From Planctomycetota bacterium (lineage in GTDB: Bacteria > Planctomycetota > PUPC01 > DSUN01): a stretch of DNA of 25,538 nucleotides. The stretch is taken from the NCBI GenBank assembly GCA_016872875.1, contig VGYW01000075.1, positions 1 through 25,538 on the forward strand, in the 5' to 3' direction. The position numbers were made by a program, and so were the translations under genes. Shown here in pieces: positions 2,576 to 25,538 of this stretch; the first letter of the stretch is position 1, and each line of letters opens with the position of its first letter. The notes beneath the pieces are model-generated. The model did no database searches, had not been told where the DNA came from, and saw only the letters and a program-made list of their open reading frames with translations.

Positions 2576-5500
2576 CTACTTCTGTGCGGCGCTGGCCTTC
2601 TTGCAGCACAGCACCCTTGCAGCATAGTCGGTGCTGATGAGTGTCTCGCCCTCGTAGAGGCCGGCCAGCACGGTGTAGAGGCCCTCGGGGGCCTGTCCGC
2701 TGAGCTTGACCTTGAAGTCCCACGCGGTGGTGCCGGGCGTGCTGCCCCGCATCCCCGCGGGGGTAGCGGTTACCCCGTCCGGAAGCGTGAGCCGCACCTC
2801 TCCTCGAACAGGCTCTCTGGTGACGGGCCGGGGCCGGAACGACAACATCGTTTCCCCGCCGGGAGGGAGGATGCGCTTCTTGGGGAGGTCGTTGTAGAAG
2901 AAGGCTTTGGCCGCGTCGCCCGGCGGGCCGAAGACTTCGACCGCCCGAAGCGTCGAGAGCTTGGGTATCCACTCGATGCTCTCAAAGAGGCAGGAGTTGA
3001 CCATGTGAACGAGCACCCGCACGCGGTCGGTCGTCACAGACGGAAAGCCGTGGTCCGTGACGAAACGATAGCGGTTGCCGCGGACCTTGTCCACCGTGGT
3101 CCATTGGCCGTTCACGAAAGCCTGGATGTCCCAATCGCGCAACACGCGCTCCCATGCGCCGTAGTCGTGGTAGAGCCGCACTCTGGCGATGGGAACCGGC
3201 TTGGGCAGTTTGACCTCGAACCAGTCGGGCCACTGGTCTTTGCCGCTCTCATCCTCGTCCCACCCGCGGCGCGCGCCGGTGAGCGCCCCCGCGCTGGACC
3301 AACAGGTCGGGTCCCCCGCGATGGCGGCCGCCGGCGGCAGCGCCTCGCCCTTCTTCGGCTTGGCGACGGATGAGGCAGAGGCGGTGGCGCCAAGCGTTGG
3401 GATAGCCATGTTGGGCCGCACGCGCAGGCCATCATGGGTCGGCTCAATCCTGTTCTTCGCTCCTACGATAAGATAGGTCGGGTCGCCAGAGATGGCGAGG
3501 CGGAGCTTCCGATCCTCTGGCTTGAGGGTGCGGCGGTTGCCCATCATATCGGTGGCGACGACCTCGGCGGCATCAGTTGCGATGCTTAGCTCGACCGGCT
3601 CGTCCCCCGTGTAGCCCACGGCAACAGTGCGCGTAGCATCACGATAGATTTGGAAGTAGTGGCCGAGGGTCGGCAGCGGAATCTCCCTCTCGAACTTCGC
3701 GTCGCGCAGGCACTCGTTCATCACCTGGATGGCGATTGCGGCGGGCGTGGGGTAGTTGTAGGTGACGAGGAAGAACTCGTTGTAGCCGTGCTCGACGAGG
3801 TAGAAGTCGTAGATGCGGTCGCGGGGGATGGCCATCGCTTCGGCGTGGAGGTGCACCAGAGCGGCGTGGCGGGCCTGGCTCTGGCGATAGGCCCCGAAGC
3901 GGTCGTAGACGTAGTCGTTGAACATCCAGCCGCGGTGCCACGCGCTCTCGGTCATCCAGAGGCCCTGCGACGCGTCCTTGAAGTCGCGCAGCACCTGCCA
4001 CCACTCGTCCAGCTCGGAGCGATAGACCTCCTGGAAGCCGTTGCCGGTGTAGGGATGGAACGAGACGCCGTCGAAGAACTTGTCGCCCCCCAGCTCGTAG
4101 AGTCGGCGGAGCCAGCGGTACTTGTCCAGCCCGCACAGCGACCCGCCGAGGAAGTTCGCCTGCGGGTTGCCCGCCTTCACCGCGGGGTATTGCACCTTGA
4201 GGACATCCTCGATGTACTTCTCCGGCGGCATGGAGAGGTCAGGCTCGTTGATAGGCTCCCAGATGGCCACGCCAAGCTTCGCCGCCTCGCGGGCGTATTC
4301 GGTGAGATAGCGGCTCTTGGCCTCGATGATGGACTTGTTCCGCTGCTCGGGGTCGGGGTACTTCCCGGTGAACCATTTGTCGAGGTCCGCCGACCAGTCG
4401 AGGCCAAGGAACGAAAAGAGGCCCTTGAGCGTGCCTTGCTTTGCCGGTTCGAGGAGGGCCGCGAACTTCCTCGCCCAGCTCTCCCAGTTGATCCAGCCAA
4501 CGCGGTCTTGGTGTTCGCGCCAGGTGTTGGCGAAGGAGGGGTTGAGGCGTATGCCGCGCATGCCGAGGATGTTCGCCCAGAGCATCTCGCTGTCCACCCC
4601 CGGCTTGCCGTCGAGCTCGCGGAGCTTCGGGGCCTCTGGCCGGATGCGGGCGAACGAGATGTCCCAAATGCGCTGGGCAGTCCGGACCGTCGCGCTTTCG
4701 CGCGAAAGCGCGACGGTCCCGCCCGCGGCCGTGAGGGCGAGCCTCGCCCGGAAGTAGCCCATCTCCTTTGGGGTCAGGTCCACCGCCACTTCGGGCGGCC
4801 TGCCAGCCTCGATGGTCACCGGCTGCTCGCCGGTGGCGACTTCGCGCTGCATGTGGTCCTCGGTTCGCCAGCGGAGCACCCACTGGCCAGGCACGCGGTA
4901 GTCCTTGGCGAAGTCGAGCTGGTAGAGCACCCGCTCATCTTCGTAGAAGAGGCTTCGGGGCTTGTCGGGGCGGACGGTGAAGTAGGGAGCCGGCTCGATG
5001 GCGCCCTTGGCGGGAGCGATAGCGAGGGTGATGACGTTCTCGCCCTTGGCCTCGCGGAGCCCGAAGTAGCCGCGCTTCCCCTTGAGGGCCTCGTTTGTGT
5101 AGGGGTCGCCCTTGCCGATCGCGTAGTGCGAGACGCCCGTGATGCCACGAAGCTCAACCTTAGTGCCGTCGGCGTAAGTGACCTCAATCTCCGGCCAGTA
5201 GCGGCCATACATCTGGTAGAAGGAAAAGATGTGGCGGGAGCAAATGTAGTTGGCGGGCAGGGCATCCTCGTCGCCGCTGCGGAGGTTCTTCACGGCGAGC
5301 GCGTCGTCGCCGAAGACGCCCGAGATGTCGAAGATGGGCGGCTGCTCCTTCCCCTTGCCCTTCGGCGCGCGGAGTGACGCGGGGATGATCTCTATCCTGT
5401 CGGGCAGGAAGTGGAGCGTGAGGCCGGGCAAGTCCGATTGCGGATTGCGGATTGCGGATTGTGGATTTGCAGCCGGCTCGCCTTCGCGGAGGGTGATGCG

Positions 5501-5788
5501 CTTCTGCTTCTCATCGAGGGCGATGTCGCACAGGGCCTTCGCCTTCCGGCCAAGCTCGAGGACCAGGTTGCTGATGAGCACGGTCTTGCCGGCGAGGAGC
5601 CGCGTGCGGCCGTCGGCGAACACCTCCGCACGGTAGGCTGGGGTCTGCACCGTGTAGGCTGGGAGCTTCTGCTCGGCGAGCTCGCCTGCGGCGGGGTCAG
5701 CCTTCTTGATCGTGACGCCCTCAGCCCCTCGGGCCAGAGCGTCGAGGCAAAGGAGCAGGGGGCCGATAGCTGCCAGTCTGTACAACAC
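2576..5788 (-). CDS. Secreted multidomain glycoside hydrolase (clan GH-A barrel + discoidin-like domain), 1070 aa
   Basis: A large exported enzyme. The GTG at 5788 is preferred as start: AGGGGA lies six bases upstream, a promoter lies at 5836-5864, and translation gives a signal peptide at once (LYRLAAIGPLLLCLDALARG). An earlier ATG at 5839 would fall inside that promoter. Residues ~25-380 are beta-rich. A TIM barrel follows, with acid/base E515 in IWEPINEPD and nucleophile E614 in WMTESAW, the usual clan GH-A arrangement. Residues ~800-960 look like an F5/8-type C (discoidin) carbohydrate-binding domain (WSSAG...WFEVKLPKPVPIARVRLY). A last beta domain ends in CCKKASAAQK. Two repeats are translated in frame: NPQSAIRNPQS (~107-118) and TVALSRESATV (~357-369). 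The gene converges on the GH42-like gene with only three bases between the stops. Substrate is unknown. Confidence 0.8.
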   Translation of the reverse strand: MLYRLAAIGPLLLCLDALARGAEGVTIKKADPAAGELAEQKLPAYTVQTPAYRAEVFADGRTRLLAGKTVLISNLVLELGRKAKALCDIALDEKQKRITLREGEPAANPQSAIRNPQSDLPGLTLHFLPDRIEIIPASLRAPKGKGKEQPPIFDISGVFGDDALAVKNLRSGDEDALPANYICSRHIFSFYQMYGRYWPEIEVTYADGTKVELRGITGVSHYAIGKGDPYTNEALKGKRGYFGLREAKGENVITLAIAPAKGAIEPAPYFTVRPDKPRSLFYEDERVLYQLDFAKDYRVPGQWVLRWRTEDHMQREVATGEQPVTIEAGRPPEVAVDLTPKEMGYFRARLALTAAGGTVALSRESATVRTAQRIWDISFARIRPEAPKLRELDGKPGVDSEMLWANILGMRGIRLNPSFANTWREHQDRVGWINWESWARKFAALLEPAKQGTLKGLFSFLGLDWSADLDKWFTGKYPDPEQRNKSIIEAKSRYLTEYAREAAKLGVAIWEPINEPDLSMPPEKYIEDVLKVQYPAVKAGNPQANFLGGSLCGLDKYRWLRRLYELGGDKFFDGVSFHPYTGNGFQEVYRSELDEWWQVLRDFKDASQGLWMTESAWHRGWMFNDYVYDRFGAYRQSQARHAALVHLHAEAMAIPRDRIYDFYLVEHGYNEFFLVTYNYPTPAAIAIQVMNECLRDAKFEREIPLPTLGHYFQIYRDATRTVAVGYTGDEPVELSIATDAAEVVATDMMGNRRTLKPEDRKLRLAISGDPTYLIVGAKNRIEPTHDGLRVRPNMAIPTLGATASASSVAKPKKGEALPPAAAIAGDPTCWSSAGALTGARRGWDEDESGKDQWPDWFEVKLPKPVPIARVRLYHDYGAWERVLRDWDIQAFVNGQWTTVDKVRGNRYRFVTDHGFPSVTTDRVRVLVHMVNSCLFESIEWIPKLSTLRAVEVFGPPGDAAKAFFYNDLPKKRILPPGGETMLSFRPRPVTREPVRGEVRLTLPDGVTATPAGMRGSTPGTTAWDFKVKLSGQAPEGLYTVLAGLYEGETLISTDYAARVLCCKKASAAQK
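4684..4719. repeat. Perfect 36-base palindrome inside a coding sequence
   Basis: The sequence is a perfect inverted repeat with no loop, centred between 4701 and 4702. Its half-arm contains GTCGCGCTTTCGC. The central 26 bases (4689-4714) recur exactly at 24114-24139 in non-coding DNA. The outer base pairs differ between the copies, yet each copy stays self-complementary. Here it is read on the minus strand as TVALSRESATV within the beta-rich part of the large hydrolase. Confidence 0.95.
5436..5468. repeat. GATTGCG heptamer tandem repeat inside the large hydrolase gene
   Basis: Three exact GATTGCG units (5436-5456) are followed by GATTGTG and a partial GATTT. On the minus strand it is translated as NPQSAIRNPQS near residues 107-118. 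Seven-base units shift frame by one each, so only certain copy numbers keep this gene open. The array resembles the heptanucleotide STRR sequences described in filamentous cyanobacteria, though the unit sequence is different. Confidence 0.9.
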
Positions 5789-6103
5789 GAGGCTTCCCCT
5801 ACCGGTGCGCGATTGCGTGCCGTCCAACCAGACGAACAATACAACATCGCGACCACCGGGTCAAGGCACGCCGGATGCAGTTGTGGCTCTTCGTTGTCCT
5901 TCGCCCACACGCCTGCTCCGAGGCTGCCGCAGCGGGCCCCCCAGATGCCATAGGACATATGTCCGTCTTTGAGGCGGCGGGGATACGCCCCCCGCAGCGC
6001 CTGACGCCCTTGGGGGGGGCGGAGATGTAGTGCCTTACGCCGATCCCATGCTCGCAAGTCCTTGAAACCAAAGGACTTCTTCTTGCCTACTGTCGACAAT
6101 CAG
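5789..6103. other. Intergenic region between the large hydrolase and the sugar transferase
   Basis: This 315-base gap holds the hydrolase promoter at 5836-5864. GC-rich, partly self-complementary sequence lies at ~5965-6025. An 8-base inverted repeat lies at 6056-6063 and 6071-6078 (AAGTCCTT/AAGGACTT, loop of seven), just past the sugar-transferase stop. No T-tract follows that stem on the minus strand, so it is a poor intrinsic terminator. No gene is apparent. Confidence 0.6.
5836..5864 (-). promoter_or_regulatory. Sigma70-like promoter of the large secreted hydrolase
   Basis: Reading the minus strand, TTGACC (5864-5859) and TATTGT (5841-5836) are separated by 17 bases. The inferred start of transcription, near 5829, lies about 40 bases ahead of the GTG start at 5788. 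Confidence 0.6.
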
Positions 6104-22722: not shown

Positions 22723-23946
22723 TCACGAGAAGTACGCCAGGGCCTCCGCGGCGCCGGCCACAAGGACCCTCCTGTCCCCGAACTCATGCACTTCCCAAGC
22801 CGGGCGGCGCACGACCTGAAGACCCTGGCTGCACGGCAGGAGGCCGGCGAACTTCCCCCAGCTCGGCGACAGCGCGGTTTCCGAGAGCTTCGCCTCGACG
22901 GGAAGCCAGGGGACTCCATCCCGGACGATGAGGAAGTCGATCTCGTGCCTCTCCTTGTCGCGCAGGCACCAGAGGCTGAAATCGCCTTCGCCCGTGTCCG
23001 TCCAGTAGTCGCACGCTTTCAGCAGATGGGCGGCAACCAGGTTCTCGAAGCGCGCCGCCTCGTCGCGCACCGCCGCATAGTCCCACAGGTAGACCTTCCC
23101 CTCGCGCCGCAGGGCGCGTGGGATTCGTCGGCTGTAGGGCTTGACCTCGAAGAGGTAGTACAGCTCCTTCAGGTACGCCAGCCACCGACGCACCGTGTCG
23201 AAGCTGACCTCCAGGTACTCCCGTAGGCTGGCAATGCTGAACGGCGAACCCACGCGCTCCGGGAGCAAGGCCGCCATCAACTCCAGCCGCCCGAGATCCG
23301 GCAGCCGGCTGATGTCCCGAAGGTCCTCGCGGATGATGATCTGCTCGTGGTTCCGCCGCCACAGGTTGGCACCCCGAACGTCCTGCCCAAAGAGCGGCTC
23401 AGGGAACGGGCCGTACGTCAGGAGCGAGGCCAGGTCCCCATCCGCCCCCCGGCGGCGCGGGGCAGCACGGCTGAAAAGGGAGGCCAGCGCTTCGTCCGGC
23501 CCCAGCATGTCGGCCCGCCGCATCTCCCGCAGGCTGAAGGGGTGCAGCCGAAAATGCAAGTACCGGCCGAGCAGGCTGTCGCCGCCCCGACGATACACGT
23601 TCAGCCGCGCGCTCCCGGTCACAAGGAAGTCGCAGGGCGCCGACAGCGTGTCGAACAGCCCCTTGAGGTTGCGCTTCCAAAGCCGGTCCTTGTGGATCTC
23701 GTCCAGGACGACGAGCGGCGCGACATCGCCCACGGGCGGCGGCGGGATGATGGCCGACGGCTTCTTTGCCCAGGCGTGGCGGAACTCGAACTCGTCCCAG
23801 TTGTAGTAGCTCCCCGCGCCCCGCTTCCGCAGCAGCATTTTCGCCAGCGTCGTCTTCCCGCACTGGCGAGGCCCCGACACCATCGCGATCTTGTGCCGCG
23901 CGAAGCAGCGCGACTCGATCTGGCTGGCGAGATAGCGGTTCTTCAT
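22723..23946 (-). CDS. AAA ATPase of the AAA_14/DUF4143 type, 407 aa
   Basis: An ATPase with Walker A GPRQCGKT (G25-T32; K31), Walker B VVLDEIHK (D82, E83) and VTGSARL, which matches the sensor region. The C-terminal DUF4143 domain carries EIDFLIVRDG...PVEAK, a pattern like the acidic/Lys residues of PD-(D/E)XK-type nucleases. Members are scattered in bacterial and archaeal genomes, often in variable regions, and their role is not established. The ATG at 23946 is used because MKNRYLASQI starts there and no longer frame has conserved sequence. A promoter (23954-23982) ends so close to the ATG that the mRNA would be leaderless, and no ribosome site is present. The gene is bracketed by copies of one palindrome. 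Confidence 0.88.
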   Translation of the reverse strand: MKNRYLASQIESRCFARHKIAMVSGPRQCGKTTLAKMLLRKRGAGSYYNWDEFEFRHAWAKKPSAIIPPPPVGDVAPLVVLDEIHKDRLWKRNLKGLFDTLSAPCDFLVTGSARLNVYRRGGDSLLGRYLHFRLHPFSLREMRRADMLGPDEALASLFSRAAPRRRGADGDLASLLTYGPFPEPLFGQDVRGANLWRRNHEQIIIREDLRDISRLPDLGRLELMAALLPERVGSPFSIASLREYLEVSFDTVRRWLAYLKELYYLFEVKPYSRRIPRALRREGKVYLWDYAAVRDEAARFENLVAAHLLKACDYWTDTGEGDFSLWCLRDKERHEIDFLIVRDGVPWLPVEAKLSETALSPSWGKFAGLLPCSQGLQVVRRPAWEVHEFGDRRVLVAGAAEALAYFS

Positions 23947-23949
23947 TCT

Positions 23950-23980
23950 GACCATACTATGGGAAGACCGCAGTTTAGTC
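23950..23980. repeat. 31-base palindrome, degenerate copy 2
   Basis: The sequence aligns with the other three copies over all 31 bases but has substitutions in both arms (plus-strand left arm GACCATACTATGG, right arm CCGCAGTTTAGTC). These changes coincide with the -35 and -10 of the ATPase promoter. Confidence 0.85.
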
Positions 23981-23982
23981 AA
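23954..23982 (-). promoter_or_regulatory. Promoter of the ATPase gene, formed by a degenerate repeat; leaderless mRNA
   Basis: On the minus strand TTGACT (23982-23977) and TAGTAT (23959-23954) are 17 bases apart, as in the other promoters of the window. The ATG at 23946 begins eight bases past the -10, where transcription would start, so the message should have almost no leader. In the intact repeat the -10 position reads CAGTTT. The differing bases here produce the box. Confidence 0.55.
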
Positions 23983-23991
23983 GCCCATCCT

Positions 23992-24057
23992 GACCAAACT
24001 GCGGGCAGTCCGCAGTTTGGTCAGCCCCCCACTCCCGTCATTCCGAGCGGAGGCCGC
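23992..24057. repeat. 66-base direct repeat, copy 1, containing palindrome copy 3
   Basis: Bases 23992-24022 are the 31-base palindrome (spacer GCAGT). Then come C-rich sequence and ATTCCGAGCGGAGG. The whole 66 bases recur 171 bases downstream (24163-24228) with three mismatches. Confidence 0.93.
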
Positions 24058-24109
24058 TCCCGCCCCCACGCTCTGCCCTGGCCATGCCTGCGGACGCGCG
24101 TGACGCGGG

Positions 24110-24143
24110 GATTGTCGCGCTTTCGCGCGAAAGCGCGACAATC
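24110..24143. repeat. Perfect 34-base palindrome
   Basis: A perfect palindrome centred between 24126 and 24127. Its middle 26 bases are identical to 4689-4714 inside the large hydrolase gene. Here the outer pairs are GATT/AATC, there GGACC/GGTCC. It lies between the two 66-base direct repeats. Confidence 0.95.
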
Positions 24144-24162
24144 GGCCCATCCCCACGGCTCC

Positions 24163-24228
24163 GACCAAACTGCGGGCAGGCCGCAGTTTGGTCAGGCCCC
24201 CACTCCCGTCATTCCGAGCGGAGGTCGC
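24163..24228. repeat. 66-base direct repeat, copy 2, containing palindrome copy 4
   Basis: Bases 24163-24193 are the 31-base palindrome (arms perfect, spacer GCAGG). The remaining 35 bases match 24023-24057 with two mismatches. Confidence 0.93.
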
Positions 24229-24252
24229 CTCTTTGGGGTGCTGATGCTCTCT

Positions 24253-24278
24253 CGTCCCCACGCTCCCGCGTGGGGACG
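24253..24278. repeat. CGTCCCCACGC hairpin
   Basis: Perfect 11-base arms (24253-24263 and 24268-24278) around TCCC. It is similar in type to the palindrome at 7457-7481 but not in exact sequence. Confidence 0.85.
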
Positions 24279-24402: not shown

Positions 24403-25538
24403 TCATTTCCTCGGGGTCATCTTGAGCACACACGCACTCTCGCACGGGCGCTGGGCGGGGAGCTTGGCGCGCAGGGCCGACTCGTCGCGTGTCCACTGGA
24501 CCGGCTCTTTCGAGCCGAGGAGCTGGACACCGCCTATCTCGCGCGGGTAGAGCCGCAAGGCGCTGCCGAGCGATTGGATGGCGACCTCGCCGCTCTCAGG
24601 CCAAGCGAGGACGATCGCGTAGAGGACATCGCCCTTGGCGGTGAAGCGCACGTCGCGGCTGGTGAAGGCAGAGCGCTTGGTGTCGGTGAACAGGCCCGAG
24701 ACGACCTGGGTCGGCCCCTCGCCGTAGACCTTCCACGGGCGGGTGCCGTAGATGGCCTCGCCGTTGGTCCAGAGCCAGCGGCCAACGTCCAGGAGTATCC
24801 GCTCGTCCCCCTCGGGGATCGTGCCGTCGGGCCGCGGGCCGATGTTGAGGAGCAGCGCGCCGTTCTTGCTCACGATGTCCGCCAGGTCGCCAACCACCTG
24901 GTCGGCCGTCTTGTAGTCGGGGTCGCTCACGTAGCCCCAGGAGTTCTTCGCCACCGCCGTGTCCGTCTGCCAGAAGTGGGGGTTGATGTCGTCGAGTTGG
25001 CCGCGTTCTATGTCGTAGACGGCGGCCTTGGGCGGGAAGCTCTTGAGCTTGTAGTTGATTGCCACGCCGCGGCCCCACTGGGCGCCGCGGTTGTAGTAGT
25101 AGGCGGCGAAGCGGCGGAGGTAGGGGGCGAAGACCGGCTGCTCGATCCACCAGTCGAACCAGACGAGTTGCGGCTGATACTTGTCCACCAGCTCGCACGT
25201 GCGGGCCAGCCAGTCGTCGAGGAACTCCTCGTTCGGCTGCATCTCCTTGGGTTGGGCGGGGCCGTAGAGGCCGGCGAAGCGGGGGTCCTGGACGTCGGAG
25301 GGGAACTTCATCCCGCCGTCGAAGAACCACCAGTGCTCGGCGCGGTGGCTTGAGAGGCCGAAGGTGAGCCATTCGTCGCGGCAGGCGCGGGCGAGGTCGC
25401 CGATGAGGTCGCGGCGCGGCCCCATCTTCGCCGCACACCAGTCCGAGAAGGAGCAATCGTACATCGCAAAGCCGTCGTGATGCTCGGCCACGGGCACGAC
25501 GAACTTCGCCCCCGCCTTGCGGAACAGATTCGCCCAGG
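24403..25538 (-). CDS. Alpha-L-fucosidase, family GH29 (5' end outside window)
   Basis: The frame is open through the window edge (LWANLFRKAGAKFVVPVAEHHDGF), so the beginning is missing. The remaining ~378 residues have AEHHDGFAMYD (fucose-binding His-His), the nucleophile Asp in LVWFDWW and NGALLLNIGPRPDGTIPEGD at the end of the barrel. A C-terminal beta domain follows (~residues 250-378 of this part). It differs clearly in sequence from the GH29 enzyme at 7585-8829 and has the more classical WFD nucleophile setting, so the two are likely to be from different subfamilies rather than a recent duplication. Whether it is exported cannot be seen. Confidence 0.9.
   Translation of the reverse strand, partial: WANLFRKAGAKFVVPVAEHHDGFAMYDCSFSDWCAAKMGPRRDLIGDLARACRDEWLTFGLSSHRAEHWWFFDGGMKFPSDVQDPRFAGLYGPAQPKEMQPNEEFLDDWLARTCELVDKYQPQLVWFDWWIEQPVFAPYLRRFAAYYYNRGAQWGRGVAINYKLKSFPPKAAVYDIERGQLDDINPHFWQTDTAVAKNSWGYVSDPDYKTADQVVGDLADIVSKNGALLLNIGPRPDGTIPEGDERILLDVGRWLWTNGEAIYGTRPWKVYGEGPTQVVSGLFTDTKRSAFTSRDVRFTAKGDVLYAIVLAWPESGEVAIQSLGSALRLYPREIGGVQLLGSKEPVQWTRDESALRAKLPAQRPCESACVLKMTPRK

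What the first reader, a model, noticed from the sequence alone, without database searches (positions are those of the whole stretch)
4684..4719. Perfect 34-36 base palindromes with compensating base-pair changes, one in frame inside an enzyme gene
The palindromes at 4684-4719 and 24110-24143 share 26 central bases exactly. Outside that core, base pairs differ (CC/GG versus TT/AA), yet both arms change together so that each stays perfectly palindromic. That is covariation, which points to selection on the structure or to copying by a palindrome-making process. One copy lies in frame in a secreted hydrolase (TVALSRESATV) and the other in non-coding DNA.
Basis: partly seen in the sequence, partly recalled or inferred. 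Interest (0 to 1): 0.72.

Follow-up and report, generated by a model that had tools for sequence, protein, structure and literature searches.

The report
Bacterial palindromes with an unchanging core
A narrow group of uncultured planctomycete bacteria carries a small family of short mirror-image DNA repeats, some lying inside protein genes, whose centre stays the same between species while the two arms often change together; it looks like a new variety of a known kind of short repeat.

Summary
In detail: perfect 36-bp and 34-bp palindromes share 26 bp and differ symmetrically at two outer pairs. They belong to a real repeat family. A related Planctomycetota MAG (G001) has 12 CTTTCGCGCGAAAG sites (11 loci) against 0 for the reversed control; 8 of the other 391 phylum genomes searched have 1 or 2, the rest none. 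With the central six bases left free, all 11 exact matches in G001 still read CGCGCG. Arm pair 8 is G-C or T-A and complementary in 13 of 13 copies; further out, arms match more than shuffling gives in type A, not in type B. Copies in four unrelated genes use one frame, ALSRE[S/R]A. In two genes the insert sits at the same place in several species (host proteins 76-82% identical) with the core peptide nearly unchanged and all flanking columns changed. Best reading: a REP/RPE-like short palindromic repeat whose core is kept by recognition by an unknown protein and whose arms are corrected by hairpin template switching; both causes are inferred. GTAG/RAYT and CGTC membership tests fail. A parS/Noc-like site is a weaker rival. 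DNA of most same-site relatives could not be reached.

The parts
4684..4719 (.). copy 1: perfect 36-bp palindrome, type A (pair 8 G-C), in frame in the hydrolase-like gene
4689..4714 (.). 26-bp stretch shared exactly with copy 2
4685..4717 (-). the 11 codons (33 bp, TVALSRESATV) absent from the G001 ortholog and from P0005-P0008, as placed by the protein alignment; exact ends uncertain
2576..5839 (-). host gene of copy 1: 1087-aa protein with F5/8 type C (discoidin) domain
24110..24143 (.). copy 2: perfect 34-bp palindrome, type A, intergenic
24114..24139 (.). 26-bp stretch shared exactly with copy 1
22723..24261 (-). ORF whose coding part (AAA_14, DUF4143) lies below about 23960; copy 2 lies in its non-periodic upstream part
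24403..25497 (-). alpha-L-fucosidase gene on the other side of copy 2

Best explanation
A lineage-restricted family of short non-autonomous palindromic repeats, working like REP/RPE repeats. Shown: several copies per genome; an invariant centre inside a 20-bp unit GCKCTTTCGCGCGAAAGMGC; two types that differ by a complementary pair; location between genes and, in one frame only, inside genes; presence at the same site in several species. Inferred: new copies arrive as a hairpin-forming unit of about 33 bp; the core stays unchanged because some protein must recognise it; the arms are drawn back to complementarity by template switching at the hairpin, which turns a one-sided change into a matched pair.
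For: G001: 12 CTTTCGCGCGAAAG vs 0 control; the 12 TTTCGCGCGAAA of G001 are the same 12 places; with a free centre 11 of 11 exact matches read CGCGCG and all have a complementary pair 8; only 1 site at one mismatch, and it is not an extended palindrome. Pair 8 complementary 13 of 13; chance of that under independent halves 0.00013 if copies were unrelated. Insert present or absent in orthologs. Carriers of the hydrolase insert fall in one clade of five (99/97) and carriers of the FGE-histone deacetylase insert in one clade of seven (100/100). Core peptide varies in 1 of 7 columns, flanks in 15 of 15 and 4 of 4 (Fisher p 0.00009 and 0.015). From residues alone, matched flanks of 11 inserts allow 30 of 44 arm pairs vs 19.7 when permuted (p 0.0006). 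One frame in 4 of 4 genes. Single strands fold into full-length hairpins.
Against: No transposase was tied to it. No movement was observed. Arm covariation is not significant in type B or in the second family. Decaying copies, expected of a selfish repeat, were not found, which fits a maintained binding site as well. A or B at the same site is known only from the right-arm residue (S or R), not from DNA. P0006, sister of the carrier P0003, has a clean native site, which suggests either precise loss or separate gains. Copies share descent, which the shuffles do not correct.
Confidence: 0.5

Rival explanations
1. A dispersed binding site of a chromosome-organising protein of the ParB/Noc kind. 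Type B core TCTTTCGCGCGAAAGA differs from parS TGTTTCACGTGAAACA only at the two half-site positions at which Noc's site TATTTCCCGGGAAATA also differs. A redundant set of sites would stay intact yet be gained and lost.
For: parS and NBS consensus and the two differing positions (PMC7383237 passages); intact cores without decayed copies; G001 has 0 GTTTCNCGNGAAAC and, of 13 TTTCNCGNGAAA, 12 TTTCGCGCGAAA and 1 TTTCCCGGGAAA.
Against: The one complete ParB found in G001 (contig C754) differs, by my reading of its alignment to 6t1f, at four of six contact residues said to be conserved in ParB and Noc (K171V, S172H, N178H, R204E; numbering inferred). No palindrome lies on that contig. Conservation reaches pairs 9-10, beyond 16 bp, and a dimer site does not require pair 8 to be complementary. 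G001 has a one-mismatch parS-like site on C450, though matches up to 2 mismatches equal the control (10 vs 10). New sites as 33-bp inserts are odd for a binding site. The MAG may lack its chromosomal ParB.
Confidence: 0.2
2. Operator or other site of a different DNA-binding protein, for instance a winged-helix regulator.
For: Four copies of the second palindrome family lie within about 0.8 kb around a winged-helix gene.
Against: No relative of that regulator was found among the loci held around family 1 copies (done by phmmer on 4987 ORFs). Family 1 sites lie in genes, between convergent and between divergent genes alike, by my own simple gene caller.
Confidence: 0.12
3. Purely mutational: unrelated quasi-palindromes perfected by template switching, without a repeat family.
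For: Matched changes at pairs 8, 14 and 15; arms of coding palindromes evolve in concert in Nematomorpha mitochondria (PMC6649704 passages); template switching is proposed to create and keep perfect stems (PMC8794818 passages).
Against: Would not give one shared 14-bp core at many unrelated loci of one lineage, nor keep it unchanged.
Confidence: 0.05

Closest known systems
Rickettsia palindromic elements (RPE; grouped with CGTC-tagged repeats in PMC3733652)
   Same: Palindromic repeats in frame inside unrelated proteins
   Different: RPEs end at one side in CGTC (PMC3733652 passage) and are said to lose repeat identity with time (PMC6649704 passage); here there is no unpaired tag and the core stays intact
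GTAG-tagged REP / RAYT
   Same: Short palindromes, intergenic and intragenic; REPs at about the same site in recB of two Xanthomonas species (PMC3733652 passage)
   Different: No GTAG tag; no copy within 19 of 19 Y1_Tnp loci of G001
Coding palindromes of Nematomorpha mitochondria
   Same: Perfect palindromes in genes with arms evolving in concert (PMC6649704 passages)
   Different: Those are up to 284 bp and made of the genes' own conserved sequence; here one shared core sits in an insert
parS and NBS sites of ParB and Noc
   Same: Dispersed palindromes with the same TTTC-C-G-GAAA frame
   Different: Different bases at the two specificity positions; longer conserved unit; complementary pair 8; no fitting ParB found

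Membership tests
GTAG-REP / RAYT | GTAG tetranucleotide at one end | tested here: not met
   Arms of 13 copies listed show no shared GTAG end
GTAG-REP / RAYT | Repeat flanks a RAYT (Y1_Tnp) gene | tested here: not met
   19 Y1_Tnp matches in G001, 17 over the cut-off; 0 of 19 loci hold family 1 at up to 2 mismatches. Against this: contigs C3, C4 and C57 carry both a Y1_Tnp gene and a family 1 copy, 3.6 to 13 kb apart
CGTC-REP / RPE | Unpaired CGTC at one end, stem 8-9 bp, loop 4-5 | tested here: not met
   CGTC occurs only inside the paired arm of some type A copies; loop-free palindromes
RPE | In-frame insertion in unrelated proteins | tested here: met
   Hydrolase-like, DUF5107/TPR, FGE-histone deacetylase and LysE proteins
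RPE | Copies lose repeat identity with time | tested here: not met
   12 exact, 1 at one mismatch, then background (33 vs 13 control up to 2 mismatches); core peptide 1 of 7 columns variable
ParB/Noc site | TTTC-C-G-GAAA half-site frame | tested here: met
ParB/Noc site | Cognate ParB with intact contact residues | tested here: inconclusive
   Only complete ParB found is altered; MAG is fragmented
ParB/Noc site | Binding by the protein | not testable with these tools
   needs protein and DNA
Template-switch-corrected quasi-palindrome | Matched changes on both arms | tested here: inconclusive
   Met at pair 8 and in type A; not significant in type B or family 2

The most novel reading that the evidence does not exclude
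A modular class of palindromic elements. Two families in one lineage, type A of family 1 and family 2, share an outer half-arm motif (GAYNNTC at positions 17-11 from the centre) around unrelated 20-bp cores. The cores would be addresses read by an unknown protein and the shared ends the signal for copying, with arms corrected through the hairpin, so that an element sits inside genes for long times without decaying.
Probability: 0.17. Interest if true: 0.8.

Novelty: new variant of a known kind. Interest (0 to 1): 0.52.

Why it matters
Short bacterial palindromes inside genes are commonly seen as decaying insertions. A family whose core is kept across species while an arm pair changes in step would let one test whether such repeats are held by a protein or by hairpin template switching. 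Inside genes it passes for ordinary protein sequence (ALSRESA) and is easily missed.

Tried and rejected
Chance: rejected by shuffles and by the 12 vs 0 control. RAYT-linked REP: not supported. Viral or plasmid source: 20-mers of both types and of family 2 absent from viral contigs; plasmid matches are 9 Sinorhizobium records at E 0.1-0.3, read as chance. Three of 7 genome-contig hits (L005 Saccharopolyspora, L006 Nostoc, L007 Candidatus Spechtbacteria) share the 20-mer but not the G001 arms and were left out of all counts; L006 is itself a 42-bp perfect palindrome, so 'chance' is not shown for it. Larger repeat unit around the palindrome: an all-against-all blastn of 32 flanks was run but its output was cut; in the part seen, family 1 matches were mostly confined to the palindrome, with one longer match (L089 with L091, 141 bp, 85%) lying off it; some family 2 flanks matched further (to 170 bp at 74%). 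Near-matches on C465, C782, C534 and C270 were looked at and are not extended palindromes. Print: CTTTCGCGCGAAAG, TTTCGCGCGAAA, CATTCTATAGAATG and ALSRESA gave one paper, on E2F (listing only), and two searches for planctomycete or intragenic palindromic repeats listed nothing that I recognised as this family (listings only). These cover open-licence PMC text only.

Full report
The thing itself. The two palindromes are real and beyond chance. Copy 1 is in frame in a 1087-aa discoidin-domain, hydrolase-like protein; copy 2 is intergenic, amid other short repeats. The window is planctomycete: of 20 proteins returned for the host protein, those with a taxon in the name given by a source are Planctomycetota, Planctomycetes or Candidatus Brocadiia. 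No genome is held for the window.

Further copies. The 20-mer core was found in 7 genome-contig loci, 4 of them in one Planctomycetota MAG, VGYV01, here G001. In G001 (8.9 Mb) CTTTCGCGCGAAAG occurs 12 times against 0 for the reversed control; of the other 391 genomes searched in the phylum, 8 have 1 or 2, and the reversed control also turns up once or twice in some of them. Two of the 12 are overlapping contig ends (C205, C310), so 11 loci; that they overlap is my reading of near-identical flanks. Type A has G-C at pair 8 and type B T-A. A pattern with the central six bases and pair 8 left free gave 11 exact matches, all with CGCGCG and a complementary pair 8 (10 loci; 16 matches vs 7 control up to one mismatch). 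So the constant centre is not made by the search.

Arms. Thirteen distinct copies (2 window, 11 G001) were compared; pairs 1-6 were required by that search. Pairs 7 and 9 are constant, pair 8 is complementary in 13 of 13, pair 10 in 12 of 13. Pairs 11-18 are complementary in 61 of 104 against 37.4 shuffled (0 of 5000 as high); split by type this holds for A (36 of 48 vs 28.5, p 0.0012) and not for B (25 of 56 vs 21.6, p 0.17); pairs 19-26, outside, give 42 of 104 vs 34.6, p 0.055. Relatedness of copies is not corrected.

Same site across species. In the hydrolase-like protein 4 of 8 close orthologs carry the peptide: P0001 and P0003 (ALSRESA), P0004 and P0009 (ALSRERA), four residues before AQR in each. 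They lie in a clade of five (99/97) together with P0006, which lacks it; the order inside is partly unsure. In an FGE-sulfatase/histone deacetylase fusion, 5 of 7 members of a 100/100 clade carry it exactly 8 residues after FRCVRR, as A or B. Host proteins of the carriers are 76-82% identical to the query. A and B are not separate groups on either tree. The core peptide varies in 1 of 7 columns where flanks vary in 15 of 15 and 4 of 4. The same peptide sits in four unrelated proteins, so a DNA-level cause is inferred. Of 189 proteins held, 11 have ALSRE[S/R]A, P0001 and P0002 being one protein; no protein showed the other two reading frames of the palindrome by my motif scan. The DUF5107/TPR copy is in P0142 (G001) and in none of the other 47 proteins listed with it. 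The LysE copy lies across two contig ends. One copy (C478) falls in a short ORF of doubtful reality.

Second family. G001 has 20 hits of a CAATCATTCTATAGAATGATTG pattern at up to 3 mismatches (9 exact), none in the 8 other genomes of its class, 0 control. In 18 copies pairs 1-6 never vary; outer pairs 13-18 are not significantly concerted (64 of 108 vs 58.5, p 0.10), and unlike family 1 it has mismatched copies. Its 36 half-arms and the 12 of type A share G17 (34 of 36; 10 of 12), A16 (24; 7), Y15 (34; 12), T12 and C11 (all); type B lacks this. The match was noticed after the fact and is not corrected for looking.

What it works like. It works like an in-frame short palindromic repeat of the REP/RPE kind, but fails the tag and transposase tests and keeps its core. 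The parS/Noc resemblance falls on exactly the two specificity positions, yet no fitting ParB was found and it leaves pair 8 unexplained. Template switching is a documented way to make and keep perfect stems (PMC8794818 passages; PMC7202029 listing and start of abstract) and is my preferred source of matched arm changes; it is not shown here.

Limits. One fragmented MAG supplies 11 of the 13 DNA copies. Gene calls in G001 come from a simple caller of mine. No structure was predicted.

Noticed in passing
L143:1034-1832 (G001 contig C710): Four copies of the second palindrome family surround a 93-aa winged-helix gene (1106-1387, HTH_20 and ArsR-type HTH_5 above cut-off), as if it read them.
   Followed up: partly
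L094:11516-11961 (G001 contig C111): Families 1 and 2 alternate at about 135-bp steps (B, family 2, A, family 2); the two family 2 copies lie in 78-bp repeats 99% alike.
   Followed up: partly
L131:1886 (G001 contig C136): A further palindrome-like sequence with GTCGTTC...GAACGAC ends and another core, about 390 bp from a family 2 copy.
   Followed up: no
L006:1989-2030: A Nostoc contig holds a 42-bp perfect palindrome with the same 20-bp centre and other arms.
   Followed up: no
window:22684-22714, 23990-24024, 24163-24193: A separate hairpin family GACCAAACTGCGG-N5-CCGCAGTTTGGTC with variable loop, on both sides of copy 2.
   Followed up: no
window:5435-5467 (minus): The same host protein has a second repeat-like stretch, NPQSAIRNPQS, changed or missing in orthologs.
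   Followed up: no
P0023, P0024 linker: Beside the palindrome peptide lies another long insert (VIPSLSR...KLRMT) in the linker of the FGE-histone deacetylase protein, so this linker seems to gather inserts.
   Followed up: no
window:9450-9495 (minus): Acido-Lenti-1 RNA, 46 bits against a gathering score of 37.
   Followed up: no
window:9883-9971: Inverted repeat with 27-nt arms, 96% complementary, 35 nt apart.
   Followed up: no
L099:469-1371 (minus, G001 contig C754): ParB-family protein next to an AAA_22 ATPase, with several DNA-contact residues changed by my alignment reading.
   Followed up: partly
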